From: JACRDV01 sp024860865 [NCBI: Methanobacteriota archaeon] | Lineage (GTDB): Archaea > JACRDV01 | Direction: 5' to 3' | DNA: 12,443 nt | Assembly: GCA_024860865.1 (NCBI GenBank) | Contig: JACRDV010000048.1 | Location: 1-12,443, forward strand | Shown: positions 1,803 to 12,393 of the stretch, one piece after another | How positions within the stretch are numbered: position 1 is the stretch's first letter | Layout: the number at the start of each line of letters is the position of its first letter | Made by a program: the position numbers and the translations under genes | Notes under the pieces: model-generated | Databases searched by the model: none | What the model saw: the letters and a program-made list of their open reading frames with translations, nothing else | Told to the model about the DNA's origin: nothing

Positions 1803-2002
1803 GCTGGGATATAGATTAACGATTGATTAATAGGCAGCTTAATGCTGCTCTTAATCTATTAAAAACCCAAAATGAAGGAGTGCGGTTCGCTCCGAATAGC
1901 TGGGCGAATGTAGTTTTGATGCGGAACGAGGGATTAATGAACTCTAATCCGCTGAGCATAAGCCCAGAAGTTGCAAGCGCGCCTAATATGCAACAGAACT
2001 AG
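1801..2002 (+). pseudogene. tnpB: TnpB (IS605 OrfB) C-terminal remnant, frameshifted
   Basis: The frame from 1801 reads GYRLTID. Four bases (TAAT, 1828-1831) then break the frame, and the frame from 1832 reads RQLNAALNLLKTQNEG and stays open to TAG at 2000-2002. Joined, TIDRQLNAALNLL matches the last RuvC block of TnpB nucleases (D-R-x-x-N-A-A-x-N), the motif with the final catalytic Asp. Everything upstream (zinc ribbon, earlier RuvC motifs, N-terminus) is missing and replaced by the ATPase gene. The last codons overlap the end of the convergent DHPS-like gene, so no right-end structure or guide RNA region is left. It is inert. Without a search, family assignment rests on the motif alone. 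Confidence 0.6.
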
Positions 2003-3543
2003 AATAACTCCATATCTTGAACATAACTTTTGCCAGTTTTTAAAGAAGTCTCAGCTTTTTCTAACTCTCTACCTAAATATGCTGCATGGTCAAATCTAGA
2101 AATAAGATTATGGCTAATAATTGTATCGCAAATCGCTTTTGCAGATTTTCCTTTGATAATTAAATTTTGTTTACCTTGTGGAGAATATTGAATGACTACA
2201 ATTTTGTCTTTGTCAATTAGAATCTTGAAAATCCCCTTTGGATCTCCTACAAAAACTTCGCTTTCTTGAGAATTAATCATTTCAACATCTTTTTCAATTG
2301 TTGGATCATATTCTTCTCCACGTCCGATTTTTTCTTTTACAGCCAATAAATCAATTCCAATATCTTTTGGATGTGAACCTCTTTGTCTCGCCAACATCAT
2401 CATTTTACTTGCTGTTAAAAGTTCTTCAACCGAACCTTTTGTTTTGGATGAAGCTTCAGGGGTAAAAATTATACTTACGCCTAACTCGAAAGCTATGCCG
2501 GCTAGAAGAGCATTAACCCCAATTGAATCAGCATCAATTAATTCTACCACATTCCCAGCGCCAAAGAACAGTGGAACAGTTGGATTTCTTTGCGCAAACT
2601 CATAATATGCAACAATCGATTCAACCAATCCAAAATTAATCGGATCAAGAACCGGATCAGCAATAATTTTAGAAATACCAAGTTGATGTGCAAGCTTAAT
2701 GTTGCTTTCAAGTGATTGAACTCGTTCATATGGCTTTTTTGGAATTTCTCCATTACCAGGTAAAATAACTACCGGGATATTTTTTACTGCTTCCGCTACT
2801 TGCTCTACATTGCTTCGATTTATACTTAAAACTAAATCAGCGCCTGCTTTAACTCCTGCTTTAATTTCATCCGGGTCAGCAGTATCGATGCTAACAGAAA
2901 CTTTAAGTTCAGTTTTTATTTTTCCAATCATTTCTTCAATTTTTTCTGGCCGAGGTTGATTAGCAATCATCCCAAGGTCAATCATATGAGCGCCTGAAGC
3001 AACATAGTATTTTGCTCTCTCAATGAGTTGAAATGTAGTTAAAGCTGGGGCGTTGACTATTTCAGCTAAAATTCTTGCTGGAAAATCTTTTCCAATAGGT
3101 AATTCTCCAATTAAAAAATTGCCAGGCTTTTTGAGCAAATTTTGGATATCAAGCTTTTGTTCAAATTCTTTTAATTGCTTTAAGGCTCTTTCTTTGAGTT
3201 TACTTGAAAGGAGTTTATCAGCAGGAATTGCTGCTGAAAGTTGGACATCAGCTAGGTTATCCAACACAAATGGTAGATCAGCAACATCCCTAGGGCCCTT
3301 AAATGTAGGTATCCCAATTGATTTTTCAACTTCTGAGACATCAGCATGTACTAGGCCAGGAACTAAAATTAGATCAAACTCCTTTAAATCAAGGCGCATT
3401 AAAAAATTTTTAATTATAGTTGGGCTTAAGAAAGCAGCAATTGGAACTGACAAATCAACTACAGTGGTTTCTGCCTTGCTTAACTTAGAAAGGTTTTTTA
3501 CTCTGTCCTTTGCAAGTTGACCAGTAACTAATAATACCTTCAA
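1999..3543 (-). CDS. archaeal dihydropteroate-synthase-like protein
   Basis: A 514-residue protein of the archaeal DHPS-like type implicated in H4MPT synthesis. The N-terminal part (1 to about 155) starts KVLLVTGQLAKDRV and is specific to this family. A pterin-binding-like TIM barrel follows: GAHMIDLG (184-191), SVSIDT (216-221), LVLSINRS (237-244) and ADPVLDPINFG (295-305). The canonical bacterial N-T-P-D-S-F loop is absent. The C-terminus (about 465-514: GKSAKAI, HAAYLGRELEKAE, YVQDMELF) resembles the DUF4346 domain attached to these proteins. A longer frame reaches 3660, but family N-termini begin at KVLLVTG and AGTGAT stands in for a ribosome binding site before TTG 3543, so that start is chosen. 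A TATA-like TTTATATTT (3563-3571) lies inside the divergent AIPS gene. It presumably joins a pterin to an arylamine-type acceptor; the reaction here is inferred. Confidence 0.85.
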   Translation of the reverse strand: MKVLLVTGQLAKDRVKNLSKLSKAETTVVDLSVPIAAFLSPTIIKNFLMRLDLKEFDLILVPGLVHADVSEVEKSIGIPTFKGPRDVADLPFVLDNLADVQLSAAIPADKLLSSKLKERALKQLKEFEQKLDIQNLLKKPGNFLIGELPIGKDFPARILAEIVNAPALTTFQLIERAKYYVASGAHMIDLGMIANQPRPEKIEEMIGKIKTELKVSVSIDTADPDEIKAGVKAGADLVLSINRSNVEQVAEAVKNIPVVILPGNGEIPKKPYERVQSLESNIKLAHQLGISKIIADPVLDPINFGLVESIVAYYEFAQRNPTVPLFFGAGNVVELIDADSIGVNALLAGIAFELGVSIIFTPEASSKTKGSVEELLTASKMMMLARQRGSHPKDIGIDLLAVKEKIGRGEEYDPTIEKDVEMINSQESEVFVGDPKGIFKILIDKDKIVVIQYSPQGKQNLIIKGKSAKAICDTIISHNLISRFDHAAYLGRELEKAETSLKTGKSYVQDMELF

Positions 3544-3553
3544 GGTAATCACT
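3544..3553. promoter_or_regulatory. 10-bp divergent spacer acting as ribosome binding site on both strands
   Basis: GGTAATCACT separates the two facing TTG starts. Read on the plus strand it gives GGTAATC, one mismatch from the archaeal GGTGATC, 3 nt before the AIPS start. Read on the minus strand it gives AGTGATTACC, with GTGAT 4 nt before the DHPS-like start. Both promoters must therefore lie inside the opposite coding sequence; the minus-strand candidate TATA is 3563-3571. Confidence 0.55.
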
Positions 3554-4147
3554 TTGCTTAGCAAATATAAAGAACAAGGAGATAGAATTTTTGGCGGCTT
3601 AGGGAGAGCTTTAGGCGATTTAGGTTTAACTCCAAATATGATAACTTTTCTTAGTTTCATTTGTGCTACATTGGTAGGAGTTGCCTTTGCTTTAAAATTT
3701 CTACTTCTCGCAGGGTTATTAACTATTTTAACTGGATTTTTTGATGTCCTCGATGGAGTAACTGCCCGTGTAACTAAGCAAACAACAAAGTTTGGCGGAG
3801 TTTTTGATTCTATTTTGGACCGATATTCTGAAGTTATTATCTTTGCCGGAATTATATGGTATGGAGTTAATTGGATAATCGGGTTGCTAGCACTTGCAGG
3901 TTCATTATTGGTGAGTTATACTAGAGCTAAAGGTGAGATTTTAGGCATTCAAATGTCAGGAGTTGGATTTGCAGAAAGATTGGAGAGATTAATTTTACTT
4001 GCCCTTGGAGCAATTACTGCTTTTCTGATTCCTCAAGTCTTTGGATTTTTAACTCTTGGGTTATTTGTTGTTCTAATTGCCCTTTTGTCTCATATTACTG
4101 CTTTACATAGGTTCTTCTATATTTGGCAACAACTTAAAAAGCAGTGA
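3554..4147 (+). CDS. archaetidylinositol phosphate synthase (CDP-alcohol phosphatidyltransferase)
   Basis: A 197-residue polytopic membrane enzyme. The complete CDP-alcohol phosphatidyltransferase signature is present with exact spacing: D64-x2-D67-G68-x2-A71-R72-x8-G81-x3-D85-x3-D89. Hydrophobic segments before and after fit the six-helix fold. In archaea such enzymes couple CDP-archaeol to L-myo-inositol-1-phosphate, glycerol phosphate or serine. Inositol-1-phosphate as acceptor is favoured here because the inositol-1-phosphate synthase gene lies 1 kb downstream in the same orientation. The TTG start at 3554 follows GGTAATC by 3 nt. The stop is 6 nt before the PHP-domain gene, so the two are probably cotranscribed. 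Other acceptors cannot be excluded from sequence alone. Confidence 0.85.
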   Translation: MLSKYKEQGDRIFGGLGRALGDLGLTPNMITFLSFICATLVGVAFALKFLLLAGLLTILTGFFDVLDGVTARVTKQTTKFGGVFDSILDRYSEVIIFAGIIWYGVNWIIGLLALAGSLLVSYTRAKGEILGIQMSGVGFAERLERLILLALGAITAFLIPQVFGFLTLGLFVVLIALLSHITALHRFFYIWQQLKKQ

Positions 4148-4153
4148 AGGAAA

Positions 4154-4780
4154 TTGCTTAAAGTAGATTTACACATTCATACAAAATATTCTTTTGATTC
4201 AAAATCTTCCATTGAAGAAATTATTGAAAAAGCAATTGAGAGAAAATTAGATGCTGTTGCCATAACTGACCACAATAGCTACGAAGGTTGCTTACAAATC
4301 AAGCAAATAGAATTACCTAAAAACTTAATAATTATTCCTGGAATTGAATTGCGCACAAAAGAAGGCGATATTTTACTTTTAAATACCATGCATAGATTTG
4401 AAAAAGGTCTTTCTCTCTTTAAAGTTTTAGAAGTTGCTCAGAAGTTTAGAATAATCACAATAGCTCCACATCCATTCGCTATAACACAGCCTGGGATCAA
4501 AGATTTTATTAAATTAGAAGAAATAAACGCAGTAGAAGTTATTAATGGCAGAGATTTTTTTGGTAGAGCAAATTATAAAGCATTAAAAGCAGCCCAAGGA
4601 TATAAAAAAATTGGGATTGCTTGCAGTGATGCGCATAGCGCTGATGATGTGGGGAATGTTTATACTTTAGTTGAAGCAGAACAGTCAATAGCTAGCATTT
4701 TGAACTCTATCATTGGGGGAAAAATAAAAATCCCGGAGCAATTTCTGCCATCTAAATTTTGGTCAAAACTTGGATTCTAA
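4154..4780 (+). CDS. PHP-domain metal-dependent phosphoesterase
   Basis: A 208-residue stand-alone PHP-domain protein. All metal-ligand motifs are present: H7-x-H9, D39-H40 (AITDHN), E65 (PGIEL), H106 (APHPF) and D159-x-H161 (CSDAH). No polymerase or other domain is attached, so this is a small-molecule phosphatase or phosphodiesterase type with a trinuclear metal site. The TTG start is 6 nt after the AIPS stop, preceded by an AAGGAAA purine stretch, so translation is likely coupled. Position between AIPS and inositol-1-phosphate synthase makes archaetidylinositol-phosphate dephosphorylation a plausible role. That is inference; nucleotide or oligoribonucleotide phosphatase activity is equally compatible with the fold. 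Confidence 0.88.
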   Translation: MLKVDLHIHTKYSFDSKSSIEEIIEKAIERKLDAVAITDHNSYEGCLQIKQIELPKNLIIIPGIELRTKEGDILLLNTMHRFEKGLSLFKVLEVAQKFRIITIAPHPFAITQPGIKDFIKLEEINAVEVINGRDFFGRANYKALKAAQGYKKIGIACSDAHSADDVGNVYTLVEAEQSIASILNSIIGGKIKIPEQFLPSKFWSKLGF

Positions 4781-4785
4781 AAATA

Positions 4786-5124
4786 TTAATTACTTTTATC
4801 AAATAAAGTACGAATTAAACTTTCTAAATATTCTTTTGCTTTTAAAAGGAGTTCTTCACCCTTTGGGGTAATTCTATAATATTTCCTAGGCAAAATTTCA
4901 CCGTTTTGCCACTCAGACATAACATAACCTTTGCCTTCTAATCGGTATAGAACGACATATGCAGTAATTATTGCTGGTTCCCAACCAAATCGTTTTTTAA
5001 TTTCGCTCTGGATCTCATAGGCATACATTGGGCGCTCTTTTAAAAGTCTGAGAACATACATCCAAAGATTTTCATAAGTGGTTTTGTCCCTTAACCTATC
5101 GATAGGCAGACGTTCAAGAGGCAT
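4786..5124 (-). CDS. PadR-family transcriptional regulator
   Basis: A 112-residue PadR-type regulator. The winged helix covers about 18-95: NLWMYVLRLLKERPMYAYEI, then FGWEPAIITAYVVLYRLEGKGYV, where the recognition helix of this family carries the xxVYxxLxRLExxGYV pattern, then a wing ending RKYYRITPKGEELL. A short C-terminal helix (about 90-108) would serve dimerisation. It ends 5 bp from the convergent PHP gene and starts 95 bp from the divergent inositol-1-phosphate synthase. An 18-bp palindrome lies 7 bp upstream of its ATG and a second copy 10 bp upstream of the synthase ATG. Autoregulation plus control of the synthase operon is the simplest reading. The effector is unknown. Confidence 0.9.
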   Translation of the reverse strand: MPLERLPIDRLRDKTTYENLWMYVLRLLKERPMYAYEIQSEIKKRFGWEPAIITAYVVLYRLEGKGYVMSEWQNGEILPRKYYRITPKGEELLLKAKEYLESLIRTLFDKSN

Positions 5125-5219: not shown

Positions 5220-6305
5220 ATGACGGAAATTCGCGTTGCGATAGCTGGAGTTGGCAATGTTGCATCAGCTCTTGTGCAAGGAATAGCGTTTTATGCTCAA
5301 GCAGAGAACGAAGACAGCATTTTAGGTCTAATGCACCCTGAGATAAATGGATACAAAGTAAATGACATTAAAATTGTTGCTGCTTTTGATGTGAATAAGC
5401 ACAAAATTGGAAAAGATATCAGCCAAGCTATTTTTCTTGAGCCAAACAATTGCCTCATATTTTCAGAAGTCCCGAAAATTGGAATTGAGGTGAAGAAGGG
5501 ACCAGTGCTTGATGGGATTGGAGAAACATTAGTTGATTCAGTTCCAGTGGATGAAAACCAAAAGCCTGTTGACGTTAAAAAAGAGCTTGAAAATTCCAAT
5601 GCCGATGTTTTAGTGAATTTAGTTCCTGTTGGATCTGATAAAGCAGCTAAATTCTATGCTGAGGCCGCAATTGATGCTGGCTGCGCAGTTATAAATGGAA
5701 TGCCTGCATTTGTCGCAAATAATAAAGAAATTGTTGCTAAAGCTGAAAAAAGTGGAGTTCCAGTAATCGGAGATGATGTTAAATCTCAAGTTGGGGCAAC
5801 TATTGTTCATAGGGCATTAGTTGATTTACTAGTAAACCGCGGTGTGAGACTCAAGAATACTTACCAATTAAATTTTGGCGGGGACATGGACTTTAAAAAT
5901 ATGCTTTCAAGAGAGAGGCTAAAAACAAAAAAAATCACAAAAACTGAAGCTGTTCGGAGTTTGATACCTGAGGATTATAGGGAGAGAGTCGGAATTCACA
6001 TCGGACCAAGCGATTATGTTCCATTTTTAAACAACCAAAAAATTGCTTACATAAGGGTCGAAGGAGAGAAGTTTGGTAGAGTTCCAATGTATATAGATGT
6101 AAAATTGCATGTCCATGATGCCCCAAACTCTGCCGGTTGTTTAGTTGATTGTATTCGATGTGCAAAAATTGGATTAGATCGGGGCATCAGCGGAATTTTA
6201 TATTCGCCTTCTGCGGCATATATGAAATATCCCCCTGAGAAGATGCCGGATCCACAAGCATTTAAATCACTCGAAGAGTTCATAACAGGGAAAAGAGAAC
6301 GTTAG
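5220..6305 (+). CDS. ino1: L-myo-inositol-1-phosphate synthase
   Basis: A 361-residue archaeal-type inositol-1-phosphate synthase, which converts glucose-6-phosphate to L-myo-inositol-1-phosphate with bound NAD. The Rossmann start AIAGVGNVASALVQ (7-20) carries the G-x-G-N-x-x-S fingerprint. GDDVKSQVGAT (184-194), NFGGDMDFKN (218-227), KKITKTEAV (237-245) and HDAPNSAG (299-306) are the catalytic and substrate-binding blocks of the family, including the conserved lysines. Length is in the usual range for archaeal members. It heads an operon with a RAM-domain protein (49 bp after) and a PfkB kinase. Together with AIPS at 3554 it supplies the headgroup of inositol ether lipids. The only upstream G-rich stretch, AGGGT, is a weak ribosome site, but ATG 5220 directly precedes the Rossmann fold. 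Confidence 0.93.
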   Translation: MTEIRVAIAGVGNVASALVQGIAFYAQAENEDSILGLMHPEINGYKVNDIKIVAAFDVNKHKIGKDISQAIFLEPNNCLIFSEVPKIGIEVKKGPVLDGIGETLVDSVPVDENQKPVDVKKELENSNADVLVNLVPVGSDKAAKFYAEAAIDAGCAVINGMPAFVANNKEIVAKAEKSGVPVIGDDVKSQVGATIVHRALVDLLVNRGVRLKNTYQLNFGGDMDFKNMLSRERLKTKKITKTEAVRSLIPEDYRERVGIHIGPSDYVPFLNNQKIAYIRVEGEKFGRVPMYIDVKLHVHDAPNSAGCLVDCIRCAKIGLDRGISGILYSPSAAYMKYPPEKMPDPQAFKSLEEFITGKRER

Positions 6306-6608: not shown

Positions 6609-7506
6609 ATGTACTTTGACTTAGCTGTTATTGGAAACCTTACGCTTGACCATATAGTAACGCCATTTACTGAAATCAATACTTTTGGCGGAACAGCAGC
6701 TTATACTAGCATTACAGCGAGAAGATTAGGCAGTTCAGTTGGAATAGTTTCTAAAATTGGATCTGATTTTCCACAAACATATCTTAACCAATTAAGAAAA
6801 GAAGATGTTGATCTCTATTGTGTTGAGGTTTCAAACGCAACAACGCAATTTGAACTAGTGTACGATCACAACTGGAATAGAAGACTTAAATTAAAAGCAC
6901 AATGTGCTAAAATCCTTCCAGAAGATATTCCTAAAAAATTTTTTGATACTAAGATCATTCATTTTGGTCCAGTTTTTCAGGAAATTGATTATAGAATAGT
7001 ATCGTTTGTAAAAGATAACTTTACTGGCGAAATTTCACTGAGCCTTCAAGGACTGGTTCGAGTAGTTAAAAATGATACTATTGAAATTTCTCATCCTTCT
7101 GATCTCGACCGGATTTTGGAAGCTGTAGATATTCTCTTTGCTAATGAGACAGAGATCATTTTCGATCCAAGTAAAGAACTTAATCAAAACATAGAGATAT
7201 TCAAAAAACTCGGCCCGAAGATTATCATCATCACATTAGGTAAGAAAGGTTCGATTATTTTTTCAGGCGATGATAGCTTTCATTATTCCACCAGTTAAGG
7301 CAGAAACTCGAGATCCCACGGGTGCTGGCGATTCATTTGTTGGAGGTTTTATTGGCGAATATCTTAAAACTAAGGACATTAAGCGGGCTGGACTAGTTGG
7401 TTCCGTGGCAGCTTCTTTTGTAATTGAGGATTATGGGCCTTTTAATTTCCCAAAAAGCCCAAATGAGATTTTTAAGCGCTTAAGAAGCCAAAATATAGCT
7501 TTTTAG
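6609..7506 (+). pseudogene. PfkB-family carbohydrate kinase with +1 frameshift (possible inositol kinase)
   Basis: Two frames together make one PfkB (ribokinase-family) kinase. The first, 6609-7298, begins DLAVIGNLTLDHIV and carries GGTAAYTSI (27-35), the glycine motif of the family. The second has the catalytic anion-hole motif DPTGAGDSFVGGF at about 7313-7351 and ends at TAG 7506. One extra T within CATTATTCC (7283/7284) causes the break; removing it reads straight through as SFHIPPVKAETRDPTGAGD and gives a 298-residue protein of normal length. This may be a real mutation or an assembly error. The substrate is not readable from sequence. Position behind inositol-1-phosphate synthase recalls the PfkB-type myo-inositol 3-kinase of Thermococcus, whose product is the same phosphate. 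Ribokinase or nucleoside kinase are alternatives. Confidence 0.85.
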
Positions 7507-7609: not shown

Positions 7610-8050
7610 ATGGGATTCTTTGATAAACTAAAAGAATGGTTCCATATTGGCGAGGAAAGAGAGCCAGAAGAGGCTGCGCCAAAAGTGGAGGAGTCAATCC
7701 AATTTAATGAAAATTTAAAACCTGAGTCAGTTGAGTCTCGATCAGATTCTCAAGCGAGCGAAATCTTAGCTGATTTTCCTTCTCCTGCTATAGAGACAAT
7801 TGAACCAATTAAACTTAATGAAACGACTGAAGCAGCATATGAAGTACCTAAGATTGAGGAAATTGAATTAAATAGACCAATTGAAGAATCTAAGGTAGAG
7901 CCTTTAATTGATGAAATCAAAGTTGATGAAATAAAAGTACAACAACCAATTGAAGAACCTAAAGTTGAAGAGATAATACCTCTCACTGTAAAGACTCGGG
8001 CTAAGAAAGGGAGAAGAAGTCGCGGCCGACCAAGAAAAAGATTATCTTAG
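7610..8050 (+). CDS. acidic low-complexity protein with amphipathic N-terminus and C-terminal AT-hook
   Basis: 146 residues, no enzymatic domain recognised. Residues 1-13 (MGFFDKLKEWFHI) form an amphipathic, membrane-targeting-like helix. Residues 15-125 are a Glu/Pro/Ile-rich linker with imperfect repeats: RPIEESKVEPLI at 89-100, QPIEEPKVEEII at 112-123 and a VDEIKV/DEIKV doublet between them. The tail is strongly basic (KTRAKKGRRSRGRPRKR, 128-144) and holds RGRP (138-141), the core of an AT-hook that inserts in the minor groove of AT-rich DNA. Own promoter and GGAGGT ribosome site suggest substantial expression. The last 9 bp overlap the convergent dmrB-like gene. A membrane-to-nucleoid tether is a structural guess; an alternative is an RNA-binding tail on a scaffold protein. 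Function unknown. Confidence 0.82.
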   Translation: MGFFDKLKEWFHIGEEREPEEAAPKVEESIQFNENLKPESVESRSDSQASEILADFPSPAIETIEPIKLNETTEAAYEVPKIEEIELNRPIEESKVEPLIDEIKVDEIKVQQPIEEPKVEEIIPLTVKTRAKKGRRSRGRPRKRLS

Positions 8051-8755
8051 TTTAATGATTGATTCGAAAATCTCACTTGGATGGCGAAGAACAACTACTC
8101 CTTCGAAGTTTCTTAACTTACTTAGATTATCCAGGTCTACTTTCCTCGTCTGAATTTTAATTTTTTTATTTTCAATGATAGCTTGTGCTGGACAAACTTC
8201 TATACATTTTCTGCATTGGTTACATTTAAGTAAATTAATTCTTGGACCAATTGTTATTGCCTCACTCGTACAAACTTTCACTGCTAAGCACACTTCACAT
8301 TTTATACATTTTTCATGATTAATGTGAATAGGCAATGATATTTCTGTTATTTTTGTTTGTTCAACAGGGACAAAATGGACCTTGATTGAGTTTTTCATGG
8401 CTTGAGCAATGGCATTCGTTAGCAAACTGTCAGAAATTCCATGAACAACTTTAGCAACGATATTAGTTGTAGTTGGCGAAATTATTAGCACTTTATATAA
8501 ACCCGTTGAAAAACGCCCAATTATAGGGAAACTTGCCCCTTGTTCGGCACTTTCAAATATTTCTTCACAGTAGTTACCTGGGGAAATTGCTTTCAATCGG
8601 CTCCATAGCCCATAAGTTTTAACAAGTTCTTTTCCTGCCCTTGAAAGTAAAGTTGTTATTTTAATGTTATTATTACGGCATTTTTCCATAGCATCAAATG
8701 TTTCAAATAAAAAATGAGCGGCACCAGTTATCCCCCATGCGATAAAAAAAGGCAC
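8042..8755 (-). CDS. dmrB: DmrB-like dihydromethanopterin reductase / archaeal flavoprotein with ferredoxin domain
   Basis: A 237-residue iron-sulfur flavoprotein. Residues 1-145 are the FMN-binding fold of the archaeoflavoprotein/DmrB group: IAWGITGAAHFL (5-16) and ISPTTTNIVAKVVHGISDSL (92-111). A ferredoxin domain follows: C150, C153, C156, C162 and C178, C181, C184, C188. The second cluster is canonical (CxxCxxCxxxCP); the first has five residues before its last Cys. DmrB performs the last step of H4MPT synthesis, reducing dihydromethanopterin with electrons from ferredoxin. GTGs at 8764, 8761 and 8755 are possible starts; 8755 is chosen because AGGTGG lies at the normal distance before it and the flavin fold starts there. 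It is distant from the other pterin genes and convergent with the AT-hook gene. AfpA-type electron carrier is the alternative. Confidence 0.8.
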   Translation of the reverse strand: MPFFIAWGITGAAHFLFETFDAMEKCRNNNIKITTLLSRAGKELVKTYGLWSRLKAISPGNYCEEIFESAEQGASFPIIGRFSTGLYKVLIISPTTTNIVAKVVHGISDSLLTNAIAQAMKNSIKVHFVPVEQTKITEISLPIHINHEKCIKCEVCLAVKVCTSEAITIGPRINLLKCNQCRKCIEVCPAQAIIENKKIKIQTRKVDLDNLSKLRNFEGVVVLRHPSEIFESIIKLR

Positions 8756-8773
8756 TGCCACCACCTGTTATTT

Positions 8774-8859: not shown

Positions 8860-9273
8860 TTATTGTTCCATTAATTTTAACAATTCAGCTGTACTAAATA
8901 CTCTTATTTCTTTTTTCCCTTCATAATCAGGATCATTGGTCCAAATACTATTGCAATTCAAAGCTAGATAACAAGCAACATAGGGCACATCTTTTACATC
9001 CTCTTTCATTATTGCTTTAGCGTTTTCTTTGTAAGCTTCATATTCATCGGCCGTAATTATTGTTATTTTCTCAAAAATTAGCGCCATTAATAGTTCAAAC
9101 TCATCTTTAGTTAATCCAGCTTTTTCGCATATTTCAGATTCATACTTGTAAATCTCATCAAAGACAAAATCAGGTGAAACAAATTCAAACTTGTTGCTCA
9201 TTATGATTTCTCGAGCTTTGCTATCTTTGACCAAAGCAGCTATAATCATGTTTGCGTCAATGACAATTTTCAT
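8860..9273 (-). CDS. vapC: PIN-domain ribonuclease toxin (VapC type)
   Basis: A 137-residue PIN-domain protein, the nuclease of a type II toxin-antitoxin pair. The acidic metal ligands are in place: D6 in KIVIDANMII, E40 in the VFDEIYKYE helix, D95 in VKDVPYVACYLAL and D114 in WTNDPDY. Length and the closing TAELLKLM helix are typical. Its ATG overlaps the antitoxin stop (ATGA, 9270-9273), so translation is coupled to that of the antitoxin. VapC enzymes cut specific RNAs when freed from VapB; the target here is unknown. All ligands are present, so it is probably active. Confidence 0.9.
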   Translation of the reverse strand: MKIVIDANMIIAALVKDSKAREIIMSNKFEFVSPDFVFDEIYKYESEICEKAGLTKDEFELLMALIFEKITIITADEYEAYKENAKAIMKEDVKDVPYVACYLALNCNSIWTNDPDYEGKKEIRVFSTAELLKLMEQ

Positions 9274-9497
9274 ATTATTAATCTATGTCTTCTAGCCACT
9301 TCTTTCTTTATCTTCCTGCCTATTTCCAGAGCTTCCTTCTCTGTCAACTTGCTTTTAGACACTAACTTATCCATTAATTCTAATTTCTTCGCATGCTCCC
9401 ACATTGCTTGTCTTGCCACTTCACTCCATTTTACTTCCTTATGCTTGTTCATTATTTTTTTTAAATCTTCTGGAATAGCTAAAGTCATGTTTGTCAT
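9270..9497 (-). CDS. vapB: VapB-type antitoxin
   Basis: A 75-residue protein. Residues 1-32 (MTLAIPEDLKKIM, KWSEVARQAM) fit an N-terminal ribbon-helix-helix DNA-binding domain; the charged C-terminal helix region (37-72, LTEKEALEIGRKIKKEVARR) would wrap the toxin. A second ATG three codons in cannot be excluded as the start. It precedes the PIN toxin with a 4-bp overlap. A 20-bp palindrome 16 bp upstream of its ATG is the expected autoregulatory site. Confidence 0.85.
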   Translation of the reverse strand: MTNMTLAIPEDLKKIMNKHKEVKWSEVARQAMWEHAKKLELMDKLVSKSKLTEKEALEIGRKIKKEVARRHRLII

Positions 9498-10012: not shown

Positions 10013-10660
10013 TTATTCAACTTGACCTAGGCTATACTCCTGAATTAATTTTTCAATATATTCTGCAGCCCGTTTTTCTTTTGGTAAATTTTTTGCAACA
10101 GTAATTGTCTCCTCTAATTTTTTCCTAAGCTTTTTAGCAATTACTTCTTTGTTTCTTCCTAATGCAACTTGAAGTTTTGTTGCAACTATTATAGCTCTAA
10201 GCGAAGGTGAAGTATTTCTCTTAAAAACAGGAACAAAATTTTTAACATAGATTTTTTCAATTTTTGCTTCAACTTTTGAAATTTCTGATTCTCCTAAATC
10301 ATCTTTTTTCATATAATCAAAAAAATCAGTTGGGATAAACTCAATAAAGCCATCAGCAGCTTTTAATCTAGGAGCATTTACTACATCAGCACGCTCAAAT
10401 TCATTTAATTGGAATTGCTTCTTAATAGCAGCATTTGCAAAGATCTTTAAATCTCTTGTTACATTCACTACGCCTGCTTCATTTGCAATGAGATTTTTGT
10501 AAGTATCTGTTTCCTCATAAATGTGAAAAATGAGTTTTTGATTTTGATATTCTAAACCCATAGGGGCAGCATTAGGAATTTTGGAGTTTGGAAAATAAGT
10601 TGTCAAAATTATCTCAACTGGCTCACGAGTTATCCCAAGTTTCTCTAGAATTTCTTCCAT
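10013..10660 (-). CDS. DUF447-family FMN-binding protein
   Basis: A 215-residue archaeal protein of DUF447. The N-terminal half fits an FMN-binding split barrel: VEIILTTYF (15-23), NAAPMGLEY (30-38, the family hallmark) and GVVNVTRDLKIF. ADGFIEFIPTDFF closes the barrel, and a helical C-terminal region (about 125-215) is typical of the family. Activity is unknown. It is the last gene of a run with GTP cyclohydrolase III and the CitG-like protein, 21 nt after the latter. DUF447 and CitG-like genes also recur near H4MPT genes in methylotrophic bacteria, as I recall, so a role in pterin or flavin-type cofactor synthesis is likely. ATG 10660 is the natural start although its ribosome site is weak. 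Confidence 0.82.
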   Translation of the reverse strand: MEEILEKLGITREPVEIILTTYFPNSKIPNAAPMGLEYQNQKLIFHIYEETDTYKNLIANEAGVVNVTRDLKIFANAAIKKQFQLNEFERADVVNAPRLKAADGFIEFIPTDFFDYMKKDDLGESEISKVEAKIEKIYVKNFVPVFKRNTSPSLRAIIVATKLQVALGRNKEVIAKKLRKKLEETITVAKNLPKEKRAAEYIEKLIQEYSLGQVE

Positions 10661-10681
10661 TTTCTAAACCAGTTAAATCCA

Positions 10682-11626
10682 TTACGGCCTAAAGCTGAGA
10701 AGTATTGCTACCAGCAAAGAAGAAGCAGTTAGATCAGCAGTTGTTCCAGGATTTAGTTTATTGTTCTGAGTTCGCAAACTTTTATCAAAATCTTGGAGTT
10801 TTTGAAAACCTTCCTTACTTAGTACCCCAGTTCTTAAAATTTTTTTCGCTTCATTTGAAACTTCCATTGCTTTTTCCCTACCAACTTTTCTCGCAATCAA
10901 TGTATCAGGATAGTTTGCCAGTATAGTTAAGAAAGTTTCTATTGTTGCGGTATTGATATTTTTTGTCTCTTTATAAGCTTTAATAAATGTTGGGCACCCA
11001 ACTTCAAAAGTTATTCTTAAATCGGTTATCCATTCTTCAGAAATTCTATCATAAGGTGCAGAAATTGCCATTAAAACGTATAAAGTTGTATTCATTTTTA
11101 ATATTTCAGATTTTGTCGAATCTTCATATACATCAAGGTATTGAATTTTGCTAAGACCGCCTGGAGCCGCAAGTTTTATCGCATCAATAAAATCTAGAGC
11201 ATCTTGAACTGTTGTAGAGTGAATCACCATCCTTAGGTTATCTCTAAGTTTTTTAGATTCGAATTCTTTCTCCTCACCCAAGGATTTTCCTGCAGCAGCT
11301 ATTAGCGGCATAAATAGCAGCAAAGTCCCTAAATTCGTATTCCCCCCAGTTTGCCAACGGATAGTTTCATAAACTCCTTCTTTGATATGGGCCCCAATCT
11401 TAAGTTCATTCAAACTAATGGAGCCGCTACCCGCTTTAAATCCAAGCTCGGCCTGTTTTTTAAAGACTGGCCCAACAGCTGCTGTGCTGGCTAAAAAGTG
11501 TTCATACTTTGTTTCCTTAAAATCGGCAGTTCTGTGAACGCAACCGGGTTTGGGGGAGCCGCTAATCTCTAACAAAATTGCCAATTGGGCTGCTCGCATT
11601 ATGTCATCAATTTCCAAAAAAATCAA
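10682..11626 (-). CDS. CitG-like triphosphoribosyl-dephospho-CoA synthase family protein
   Basis: A 314-residue protein of the CitG/MdcB family. Landmarks are AAQLAILLEISGSPKPGCVHR (about 12-32), GSGSISLNELKIG (66-78), WQTGGNTNLGTLLLFMPL (91-108) and the ending NPGTTADLTASSLLVAILL. Bacterial CitG uses ATP and dephospho-CoA to make the citrate lyase prosthetic group, releasing adenine. No citrate or malonate lyase genes are here, so the archaeal paralogue probably does a related ribosyl transfer in cofactor synthesis. In the usual PKPGNVHR the Asn is replaced by Cys at 29. The TTG start at 11626 overlaps the preceding stop as TTGA, indicating coupled translation; TTG 11617 or ATG 11599 are alternatives. 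Substrate unknown. Confidence 0.82.
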   Translation of the reverse strand: MIFLEIDDIMRAAQLAILLEISGSPKPGCVHRTADFKETKYEHFLASTAAVGPVFKKQAELGFKAGSGSISLNELKIGAHIKEGVYETIRWQTGGNTNLGTLLLFMPLIAAAGKSLGEEKEFESKKLRDNLRMVIHSTTVQDALDFIDAIKLAAPGGLSKIQYLDVYEDSTKSEILKMNTTLYVLMAISAPYDRISEEWITDLRITFEVGCPTFIKAYKETKNINTATIETFLTILANYPDTLIARKVGREKAMEVSNEAKKILRTGVLSKEGFQKLQDFDKSLRTQNNKLNPGTTADLTASSLLVAILLSFRP

Positions 11627-12393
11627 CCAGATTTAGAAACCCAACAGTGAATTTGATTTTTAATCTTGCCTGAGCGAATTAAATCTAAACTTTTAGCCGC
11701 TAGATGGGCAGCCTCTTCAGCTAACTTGCCCTGCCCAATTCCAACTTTTAATTTAACATTAGTTGTGCTTTCCACTGAATCAAAAATTTTCTTAAAATCA
11801 GATTCAGAAACGCCATTTGATGGTGAGATAAAATTATCACCACCAGCATAAAACACGAGAGCCCCTCTTTTTAACAGTTCTTGCATTAAAATTTGGTGGA
11901 CTTTATTCACAATTATATAACTATCATAAATTGGTTTCGTATCGGTGTAAATAGTTGTGCCGTTAATATCGATGTGGGCAATTTGAACAAGACTATTAGC
12001 TCCATTAACTAGCTCATTGCCTATGGCTAAAACTTCTTTTCGTGCACTCGACTTCGAGCTTCCAAATTTTTGTAACGCTTCAGTGGCAATCTTTTGGGCT
12101 TCATAAGCAGTGCTTCCAGAACCAATTCCCATACTAATTGTTATTGGATATCGATATCTAATGCTCTGTTGAATTTCTTGATGATCTTTCTCAGTTAGGC
12201 CATTAGAGATAACAAACATATTATCGAACCTGCAAAAGAAAGCTAAAGCTCCCTTTGATGCGAATAAACGCTCGATGTCAGCATACAGTTCGGCTTGAAG
12301 AACTTGAAGATCAGCTTCTCTTTTAGGCTCAGGCGTAACTGTCCATGGGCCGTAGTTATCAATCTGAACCACCGTCACTTGGATTTTGCTCAC
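11623..12393 (-). CDS. GTP cyclohydrolase III
   Basis: A 256-residue GTP cyclohydrolase III (archaeal ArfA/MJ0145 type). It opens GTP to the formylamino-pyrimidine nucleotide, the first step towards riboflavin and the deazaflavin F420 in archaea. VVQIDNYGPWTVTPEPKREA (8-27) is the family signature. Two nucleotidyl-cyclase-like halves each carry their motif pair: RFDN (55-58) with SMGIGSG (87-93), and AGGDN (183-187) with VGIGQGK (217-223). Metal-binding Asp residues are intact. The GTG at 12393 follows a perfect GGTGATC (12396-12402) by 2 nt. It is the first gene of the run with CitG-like and DUF447. A TATA-like run near 12424-12438 could drive it. An 11-bp direct repeat flanks the start. Confidence 0.92.
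   Translation of the reverse strand: MSKIQVTVVQIDNYGPWTVTPEPKREADLQVLQAELYADIERLFASKGALAFFCRFDNMFVISNGLTEKDHQEIQQSIRYRYPITISMGIGSGSTAYEAQKIATEALQKFGSSKSSARKEVLAIGNELVNGANSLVQIAHIDINGTTIYTDTKPIYDSYIIVNKVHQILMQELLKRGALVFYAGGDNFISPSNGVSESDFKKIFDSVESTTNVKLKVGIGQGKLAEEAAHLAAKSLDLIRSGKIKNQIHCWVSKSG

What the first reader, a model, noticed from the sequence alone, without database searches (positions are those of the whole stretch)
4154..4780. PHP-domain protein as candidate for the missing archaetidylinositol-phosphate phosphatase
Archaeal inositol lipid synthesis passes through archaetidylinositol phosphate, which must lose a phosphate. To my knowledge the phosphatase is unassigned. This PHP phosphoesterase has every metal ligand, follows AIPS by 6 bp and precedes the inositol-1-phosphate synthase locus.
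Basis: inference. Interest (0 to 1): 0.65.

Follow-up and report, generated by a model that had tools for sequence, protein, structure and literature searches.

The report
Likely missing inositol-lipid phosphatase of archaea
A small metal-dependent phosphatase of the PHP family sits beside the inositol-lipid genes in this archaeon and in a number of other archaea and some bacteria, and is probably the missing enzyme that removes the phosphate in the last step of making inositol membrane lipids.

Summary
In detail: window 4154-4780 (+) encodes a 208-aa PHP phosphoesterase with all expected metal ligands, 6 bp after an archaetidylinositol-phosphate synthase (AIPS) and, beyond a PadR gene, upstream of MIPS. 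In archaea the family lies within 3 kb of AIPS-like transferase, MIPS or CDP-archaeol synthase genes in 23 of 101 loci (16 families, the window included). Among 74 loci picked blind, 10 are linked against 1.7-2.5 expected. It lies near 12 of 80 MIPS loci in named genomes. In one actinobacterial class (probably Thermoleophilia) 18 of 20 sampled genomes have PIPS-MIPS-PHP, the PHP domain mostly fused to a PimA-like glycosyltransferase. The window genome shows only two CDP-alcohol transferases, AIPS and one beside a PS decarboxylase; its PgpA homologue is a cobamide-type fusion. Best reading: AIP/PIP phosphatase; substrate untested. Limits: 13 of 23 linked loci lie in genomes without detectable MIPS, so archaetidylglycerol phosphate may be the substrate there; canonical AIPS genes were not found linked; some AIPS archaea lack the PHP; MetRS and methanopterin contexts occur; two PAP2 proteins remain rivals.

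The parts
3554..4147 (+). archaetidylinositol-phosphate synthase (CDP-alcohol phosphatidyltransferase)
   Evidence: PF01066 E 5.6e-15; NF040950 173.9 bits vs cut-off 180; one of two PF01066 matches in the genome
4154..4780 (+). PHP phosphoesterase, candidate AIP phosphatase
   Evidence: PF02811 + PF13263; metal-ligand positions invariant; model pLDDT 92; linkage survey
4786..5124 (-). PadR-family regulator, divergent from MIPS; PadR beside MIPS recurs elsewhere
   Evidence: PF03551 E 1.3e-16; PadR beside MIPS also in L070, L085, L118, L187, L202, L249, L251, L252
5220..6305 (+). inositol-1-phosphate synthase (MIPS)
   Evidence: PF01658 E 1.9e-32; TIGR03450 E 4e-127, below that model's cut-off

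Best explanation
The PHP protein is a metal-dependent phosphomonoesterase that acts after AIPS at the membrane and converts archaetidylinositol phosphate (AIP) to archaetidylinositol (AI). Pathway: glucose-6-phosphate -> inositol-1-phosphate (MIPS) -> AIP (AIPS + CDP-archaeol) -> AI (PHP). Related PHP domains in a class of Actinomycetota, and perhaps in Chloroflexi, would do the same on phosphatidylinositol phosphate (PIP); in the former the PI made would be handed to the fused PimA-like glycosyltransferase. Shown: gene content, order, fusion, conserved ligand positions, fold (predicted). Inferred: catalysis, substrate and direction.
For: Window: 6 bp from AIPS, in a divergent PadR/MIPS setting. 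The set PadR-MIPS-CAPT-PHP recurs in f28 (L070, L118) and f108 (L085). PHP within 3 kb of CAPT, MIPS or CarS: 23 of 101 archaeal loci, 16 of 55 families, window included; nine of the 23 had been picked because linkage was seen. In families where no linkage was known when I picked: 10 of 74 loci, 9 of 42 families, vs 1.7-2.5 expected under a uniform null (Poisson 1e-5 to 3e-4). Linkage is scattered over the PHP tree: 16 changes by parsimony, at least 5 forced by starred branches. Named MIPS loci: PHP within 3 kb in 12 of 80 (two with lost metal motif, one cut by a contig end); no match of 50 bits or more elsewhere in these loci. CAPT-MIPS-PHP in this order in 18 of 20 sampled genomes of a class where 77 of 99 match the PHP domain, with a GT match in the same ORF in 17 of the 18; all 20 keep the eight ligand positions. 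The GT half of L229 matches only PimA sequences among solved structures at E<=1e-5 (E 3e-18). Conexibacter woesei, placed in that class from memory, has phosphatidylinositol as main polar lipid (PMC3035278, passage). Of 150 archaeal genomes with AIPS-like CAPT and MIPS, 120 have the PHP (46 of 52 families). In the window genome the only other CAPT lies beside a PS decarboxylase. 112 of the 284 residues of the nucleotide-binding relative 2yb1 find no counterpart in the window protein.
Against: No activity data. 13 of the 23 linked archaeal loci are in genomes without detectable MIPS. PHP occurs in 31 of 297 genomes with neither AIPS-like CAPT nor MIPS, and 30 of 150 genomes with both lack it, 16 of them one family. 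'AIPS-like' is loose: only 51 of 203 such genomes pass the NF040950 cut-off, and in the 24 of these for which I had positions of both genes the nearest pair was 52 kb apart. The closest PHP homologues by sequence are not the linked ones. PHP sits beside a MetRS-type gene in 12 loci of 6 families and near methanopterin-type genes in f8 and f27. Of 10 named homologues 4 (L173, L200, L208, L214) lack one or more ligand positions; L196 has lost the HxH motif. The cationic C-terminal tail is not specific, as two own paralogues share it.
Confidence: 0.6

Rival explanations
1. General phosphatase of phospho-headgroup ether lipids: the family removes the terminal phosphate from whatever phosphorylated headgroup the local CDP-alcohol transferase makes (archaetidylglycerol phosphate in some genomes, AIP in others).
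For: 13 of 23 linked loci are in genomes without MIPS; PHP beside CarS in 7 families; in f112 (L145) the adjacent CAPT passes the PgsA model TIGR00560 (232 bits, cut-off 109) with CarS next door.
Against: The window genome shows no CAPT apart from AIPS and one beside a PS decarboxylase (genome 92% complete), so AGP is not expected there. PHP and AIPS-like CAPT co-occur (164 of 203). The 2022 review says archaeal homologues of the known Pgp phosphatases exist.
Confidence: 0.21
2. Phosphatase of tetrahydromethanopterin synthesis (dephosphorylating dihydroneopterin monophosphate, a step recalled as unassigned), with AIPS only a neighbour.
For: The window holds several genes of that type: TIGR00284 DHPS-like, GTP cyclohydrolase IIa, CitG-like, DUF447, flavoprotein-ferredoxin (their link to methanopterin is recalled). 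PHP adjoins DHPS-like in f8 (L135, L158) and lies near DUF447/CitG in f27 (L162, L163).
Against: Only 4 of the 79 loci (L085 left out), two families besides the window, against 14 of the same 79 for lipid genes; does not explain the bacterial PIPS-MIPS-PHP operons.
Confidence: 0.09
3. Inositol-1-phosphate phosphatase, or phosphatase of another soluble inositol-phosphate compound such as a glycosylated inositol phosphate.
For: Equally consistent with MIPS linkage, including a MIPS of another sequence type (L144), and with a glycosyltransferase fusion.
Against: Hydrolysing inositol-1-phosphate would waste the substrate of the AIPS encoded just before it; the fused GT matches PimA, which acts on lipid PI; linkage to CarS and CAPT in MIPS-less genomes is not explained.
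Confidence: 0.05
4. A PAP2 (PgpB-type) protein or another unlinked phosphatase is the AIP phosphatase; the PHP protein is a nuclease or nucleotidase.
For: Two PAP2 proteins in the genome; named solved relatives act on RNA or bind nucleotides (RNase AM, 2yb1); MetRS-type neighbours in 12 loci.
Against: The PAP2 genes are on other contigs; 2yb1 and RNase AM (9etk) have about 100 residues with no counterpart here; lipid-gene context as above.
Confidence: 0.05

Closest known systems
BT_1525, PIP phosphatase of Bacteroides thetaiotaomicron (PgpA family; PMC9246714, passages read)
   Same: Same chemical step (PIP to PI), in a cluster with MIPS and PIP synthase.
   Different: PgpA family, not PHP (the word 'PHP' has 0 occurrences in that paper's main text). 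The window genome's PgpA match is fused to CbiZ.
TM0559 of Thermotoga maritima (PDB 2anu), uncharacterised PHP protein
   Same: Closest solved fold (Z 22.2, 187 aligned) and closest by profile (87.5 bits).
   Different: 24% identity over the structural alignment; the entry title assigns no function beyond 'predicted phosphoesterase'.
CehA/McbA-type metallohydrolases (NF038032)
   Same: 57.9 bits, second only to a TrlF model among NCBIfam hits.
   Different: Below that model's cut-off of 80.
RNase AM and the AMP-bound Chromobacterium PHP protein (7ug9, 9etk, 2yb1)
   Same: PHP core (Z 16.8-17.7).
   Different: 2yb1: 172 of 284 residues aligned; 9etk: 177 of 280; the rest has no counterpart in the 208-aa window protein.
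PimA, phosphatidylinositol mannosyltransferase (2gej)
   Same: Closest solved relative of the glycosyltransferase half of the actinobacterial GT::PHP fusion L229.
   Different: PimA itself carries no PHP domain (recalled); the window protein has no GT domain among its Pfam hits.

Membership tests
PHP phosphoesterase superfamily (PF02811) | PHP domain with HxH, DH, E, H and DxH metal-ligand positions | tested here: met
PHP phosphoesterase superfamily (PF02811) | PHP fold | tested here: met
   predicted model against solved structures
AIP/PIP phosphatase (functional class) | recurrent genomic link with AIPS/PIPS-like and MIPS genes | tested here: met
   but not with AIPS genes above the NF040950 cut-off (24 genomes compared)
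AIP/PIP phosphatase (functional class) | hydrolysis of AIP or PIP to AI or PI | not testable with these tools
   needs an enzyme assay
AIP/PIP phosphatase (functional class) | present in genomes that make AI (AIPS + MIPS) | tested here: inconclusive
   120 of 150 genomes, 46 of 52 families; 30 genomes lack it
PgpA family (known PIP phosphatase in Bacteroides) | PF04608 domain | tested here: not met
   not among the Pfam hits of the protein at E<=0.001
CehA/McbA metallohydrolase (NF038032) | score above the curated cut-off of 80 | tested here: not met
   57.9 bits
RNase RNM (NF047791) / 3',5'-nucleoside bisphosphate phosphatase (NF041577) | score above the curated cut-offs of 375 and 400 | tested here: not met
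   33.4 and 30.6 bits

The most novel reading that the evidence does not exclude
One PHP-phosphatase family supplies the missing phosphatase of two-step inositol-lipid synthesis in both domains: a stand-alone AIP phosphatase in most archaea that make archaetidylinositol, and, fused to a PimA-like mannosyltransferase, a bifunctional PIP phosphatase / PI glycosyltransferase in a whole actinobacterial class; where inositol is absent it serves archaetidylglycerol phosphate.
Probability: 0.48. Interest if true: 0.85.

Novelty: new variant of a known kind. Interest (0 to 1): 0.72.

Why it matters
The phosphatase that completes archaetidylinositol synthesis, and its counterpart in mycobacteria, is called unidentified in papers I could read (PMC9385802, section 12; PMC6506517, passages). 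A 2023 paper names a 'putative AIP phosphatase' (SiRe_0209) in Saccharolobus without giving its family in the passages I saw (PMC10465181). If the reading is true, one assay would close a gap in the synthesis of a common archaeal membrane lipid, give the PHP superfamily a lipid substrate, and show that PgpA-type and PHP-type enzymes took the same role independently.

Tried and rejected
A narrow AIPS-linked subgroup of PHP: rejected, as linked sequences are spread over the whole tree. In that tree L144 still counted as unlinked.

PgpA as AIP phosphatase in archaea: 75 of 297 genomes have a PF04608 match. I looked at only 4 of the 75: in G000 and G128 it is fused to CbiZ, in G027 it lies beside CobS and CbiB, in G005 beside CobS. 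I read these as the cobamide phosphatase CobZ (name recalled). The other 71 were not looked at and some may be lipid enzymes.

C-terminal cationic tail as a membrane anchor: 97% of 100 archaeal tails have net charge +2 or more, median +6, against a median of +1 in 500 neighbour ORFs; but the mean helical-moment z was only 0.47 and both own PHP paralogues also have +5 and +6. Kept as weak.

First blind count: my 79-locus subset (14 linked, 11 of 45 families) held three f9 loci and one f28 locus, all linked, whose families I already knew to be linked, and an f108 locus (L149, unlinked).

The neighbour clustering used all 101 loci, including those picked for linkage, so its ranks for CAPT and CarS are biased upward.

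A direct PHP scan of named genomes failed because the alignment had no conserved stretch. Literature: searches; of the listed papers I opened eight (PMC9385802, PMC9246714, PMC12419801, PMC8305020, PMC10465181, PMC6506517, PMC4244643, PMC3035278; passages, plus one whole section of the first) and saw none that ties PHP to this step. Nearest: PMC12419801 mentions a PHP and an HD phosphoesterase beside a UbiA-like prenyltransferase in some bacteria. The library holds only openly licensed papers and no preprints. The searches gave no paper that I used.

Absences in fold lists are not used as evidence.

Full report
What is there. Window 4154-4780 (+) is an open frame of 208 codons starting with TTG, 6 bp after the stop of a CDP-alcohol phosphatidyltransferase at 3554-4147. 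The protein matches PHP (PF02811) and PHP_C (PF13263) above their cut-offs. The transferase scores 173.9 bits on the AIPS model NF040950 (cut-off 180); the next best models score about 105 bits or less. MIPS follows at 5220-6305; between them a PadR gene lies on the other strand at 4786-5124. The metal-ligand positions are invariant in 24 homologues and complete in 99 of 102 archaeal homologues. AlphaFold2 gives a confident PHP fold (pLDDT 92, pTM 0.88). The nearest solved structures are PHP proteins, first the uncharacterised TM0559 (Z 22.2). RNase AM and the AMP-bound 2yb1 share the core, but 112 of the 284 residues of 2yb1 find no counterpart here.

Does the linkage recur? I compared positions of PHP and AIPS-like genes in 61 archaeal genomes and saw them within about 1 kb in 8 genomes of 6 families. 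I then enlarged the set to 297 genomes. Both match listings were cut to about 155 rows by the tool, so weaker PHP copies were not sampled. I fetched 100 PHP regions, which with the window make 101 loci in 55 families. Seven of the first 20 and L085 were chosen because linkage had been seen. Profiles for CAPT, MIPS and CarS, plus L144 whose MIPS of another sequence type was confirmed by Pfam, give 23 linked loci in 16 families, the window included. One of these (f111) rests on a weak CAPT match of 40 bits. In families where no linkage was known when I picked the loci, 10 of 74 loci (9 of 42 families) are linked within 3 kb, against 1.7 to 2.5 expected for 4 to 6 target genes per genome; without f111 it is 9 of 74. 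That null is simple and the loci are not independent. In f28 and f108 the set PadR-MIPS-CAPT-PHP of the window is reproduced. In a clustering of ORFs within 2.5 kb of PHP in all 101 loci, CAPT (8 families) and CarS (7) follow class I tRNA synthetases (9 families); because linked loci were over-picked, those ranks are biased, and the window's own AIPS does not appear in that CAPT cluster.

The linked transferases are not the canonical ones. Of the 51 genomes whose AIPS passes the NF040950 cut-off, I had positions of both genes for 24, and the nearest pair was 52 kb apart. The eight archaeal CAPTs near PHP that I tested score 59 to 143 bits on NF040950, and one of them (L145) fits PgsA better; the window's own, at 174, is higher than these.

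The tree of 112 PHP sequences is deep. The label 'linked' needs 16 changes by parsimony and at least 5 by starred branches. So linkage arose or was kept in several lineages; there is no single AIPS-specific subgroup.

Bacteria. PHP of this family lies within 3 kb of MIPS in 12 of 80: Woesearchaeota L205, an unclassified genome L202 (PHP cut by the contig end), five Chloroflexi/Anaerolineae loci (L173, L200, L213, L214, L216), and five loci (L196, L208, L229, L233, L238) where the PHP domain ends a long ORF. Pfam finds a GT4 glycosyltransferase in the three of these five that I tested (L196, L229, L238). L196 and L208 have lost the HxH motif. Four of ten named homologues lack one or more ligand positions (L173, L200, L208, L214). 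The glycosyltransferase half of L229 matches only PimA sequences in the Protein Data Bank at E<=1e-5. In the class of L238's genome 77 of 99 genomes match the PHP domain at E<=1e-25. I fetched 20 of the 77: 18 of 20 have CAPT, MIPS and the PHP ORF in this order on one strand; L318 has CAPT only and L310 neither. A GT match in the PHP ORF was found in 19 of 20 (not L319), several of them weak. All 20 keep the eight ligand positions. The CAPT beside L229 scores 165 bits on the AIPS model and 140 on the PIPS model, below both cut-offs. The class is probably Thermoleophilia, because L233 bears that title and its genome lies in the class. Conexibacter woesei has phosphatidylinositol as its main polar lipid (PMC3035278, one passage); its membership of this class is recalled.

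Presence and absence. Over 297 genomes: PHP 203 (E<=1e-20), AIPS-like CAPT 203 (E<=1e-18 on NF040950, 51 over its cut-off; this loose limit also rings in E. coli and Thermotoga), MIPS 161, PgpA 75. PHP and AIPS-like CAPT go together (164 both, 39, 39, 55 neither; Fisher p 4e-11, relatedness ignored). Of 150 genomes with AIPS-like CAPT and MIPS, 120 have PHP (46 of 52 families). PHP is also in 31 genomes with neither.

Rivals inside the window genome. PF01066 finds two transferases: AIPS and one directly beside a phosphatidylserine decarboxylase, hence an archaetidylserine synthase by context. Serine headgroups need no phosphatase, so AIP is the only such product expected here (genome 92% complete, 160 contigs). 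The single PgpA match is fused to CbiZ. Two PAP2 proteins exist on other contigs and cannot be excluded. The neighbourhood also holds genes of the methanopterin type, and PHP lies near such genes in f8 and f27, 4 of 79 loci; this rival is weaker in number and does not explain the bacterial operons. A MetRS-type neighbour in 12 loci of 6 families is unexplained.

How it works, as inferred. MIPS makes inositol-1-phosphate, AIPS transfers it to CDP-archaeol, and the PHP enzyme removes the phosphate monoester. Shown: gene order, content, fusion, ligand positions, predicted fold. Inferred: reaction and substrate. Thirteen of the 23 linked archaeal loci are in genomes with no detectable MIPS, and one neighbour is PgsA-like (L145). 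The family may therefore also serve archaetidylglycerol phosphate. This is the main reason for not claiming strict AIP specificity.

Literature. A 2022 review calls the phosphatase unidentified, and also says archaeal homologues of Pgp phosphatases have been identified but not studied in detail (PMC9385802, section 12 read). The M. tuberculosis PIP synthase structure paper speaks of a yet-unidentified phosphatase (PMC6506517, passages). In Bacteroides it is BT_1525, PgpA family (PMC9246714, passages). A 2023 paper names a putative AIP phosphatase SiRe_0209; its family is not in the passages seen (PMC10465181). I saw no paper tying PHP proteins to this step (searches listed under Tried and rejected).

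Verdict. Observation confirmed; interpretation supported as a candidate and widened to Bacteria. The decisive assay is simple, and I found no report that it was run.

Noticed in passing
window 4786-5124 and 5220-6305; L070, L085, L118, L187, L202, L249, L251, L252: A PadR regulator next to MIPS recurs in other loci; it may control inositol synthesis.
   Followed up: partly
window 6609-7506: A PfkB-family kinase looks split over two reading frames (6609-7298, PF00294, and 7270-7506, read): assembly error or broken gene.
   Followed up: no
window 1999-3660, 8042-8764, 10013-12393: Several genes of the methanopterin / archaeal cofactor type (TIGR00284 DHPS-like, flavoprotein-ferredoxin, DUF447, CitG-like, GTP cyclohydrolase IIa) surround the lipid genes.
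   Followed up: partly
window 8860-9497: Two overlapping small ORFs that look like a PIN-domain toxin and its antitoxin (read from sequence; not tested).
   Followed up: no
L196:4802-6550, L208:8325-10151: Long ORFs beside MIPS and CAPT whose C-terminal PHP part has lost its HxH metal motif (GT4 shown by Pfam in L196), possibly a non-catalytic remnant.
   Followed up: partly
L080, L081, L091, L093, L097, L125, L131, L148, L151, L153, L155, L164: The PHP gene sits beside a MetRS-type gene in 12 loci of 6 families; unexplained.
   Followed up: no
L066:8781-9872: A CDP-alcohol transferase fused in frame to a PTH2 peptidyl-tRNA hydrolase domain, beside PHP and CarS.
   Followed up: no
L145:2335-3528: An ORF with two CDP-alcohol transferase domains, one cardiolipin-synthase-like and one PgsA-like, beside CarS and PHP.
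   Followed up: no
G000 (whole genome): The window's genome is the only one of its phylum in the held set.
   Followed up: no
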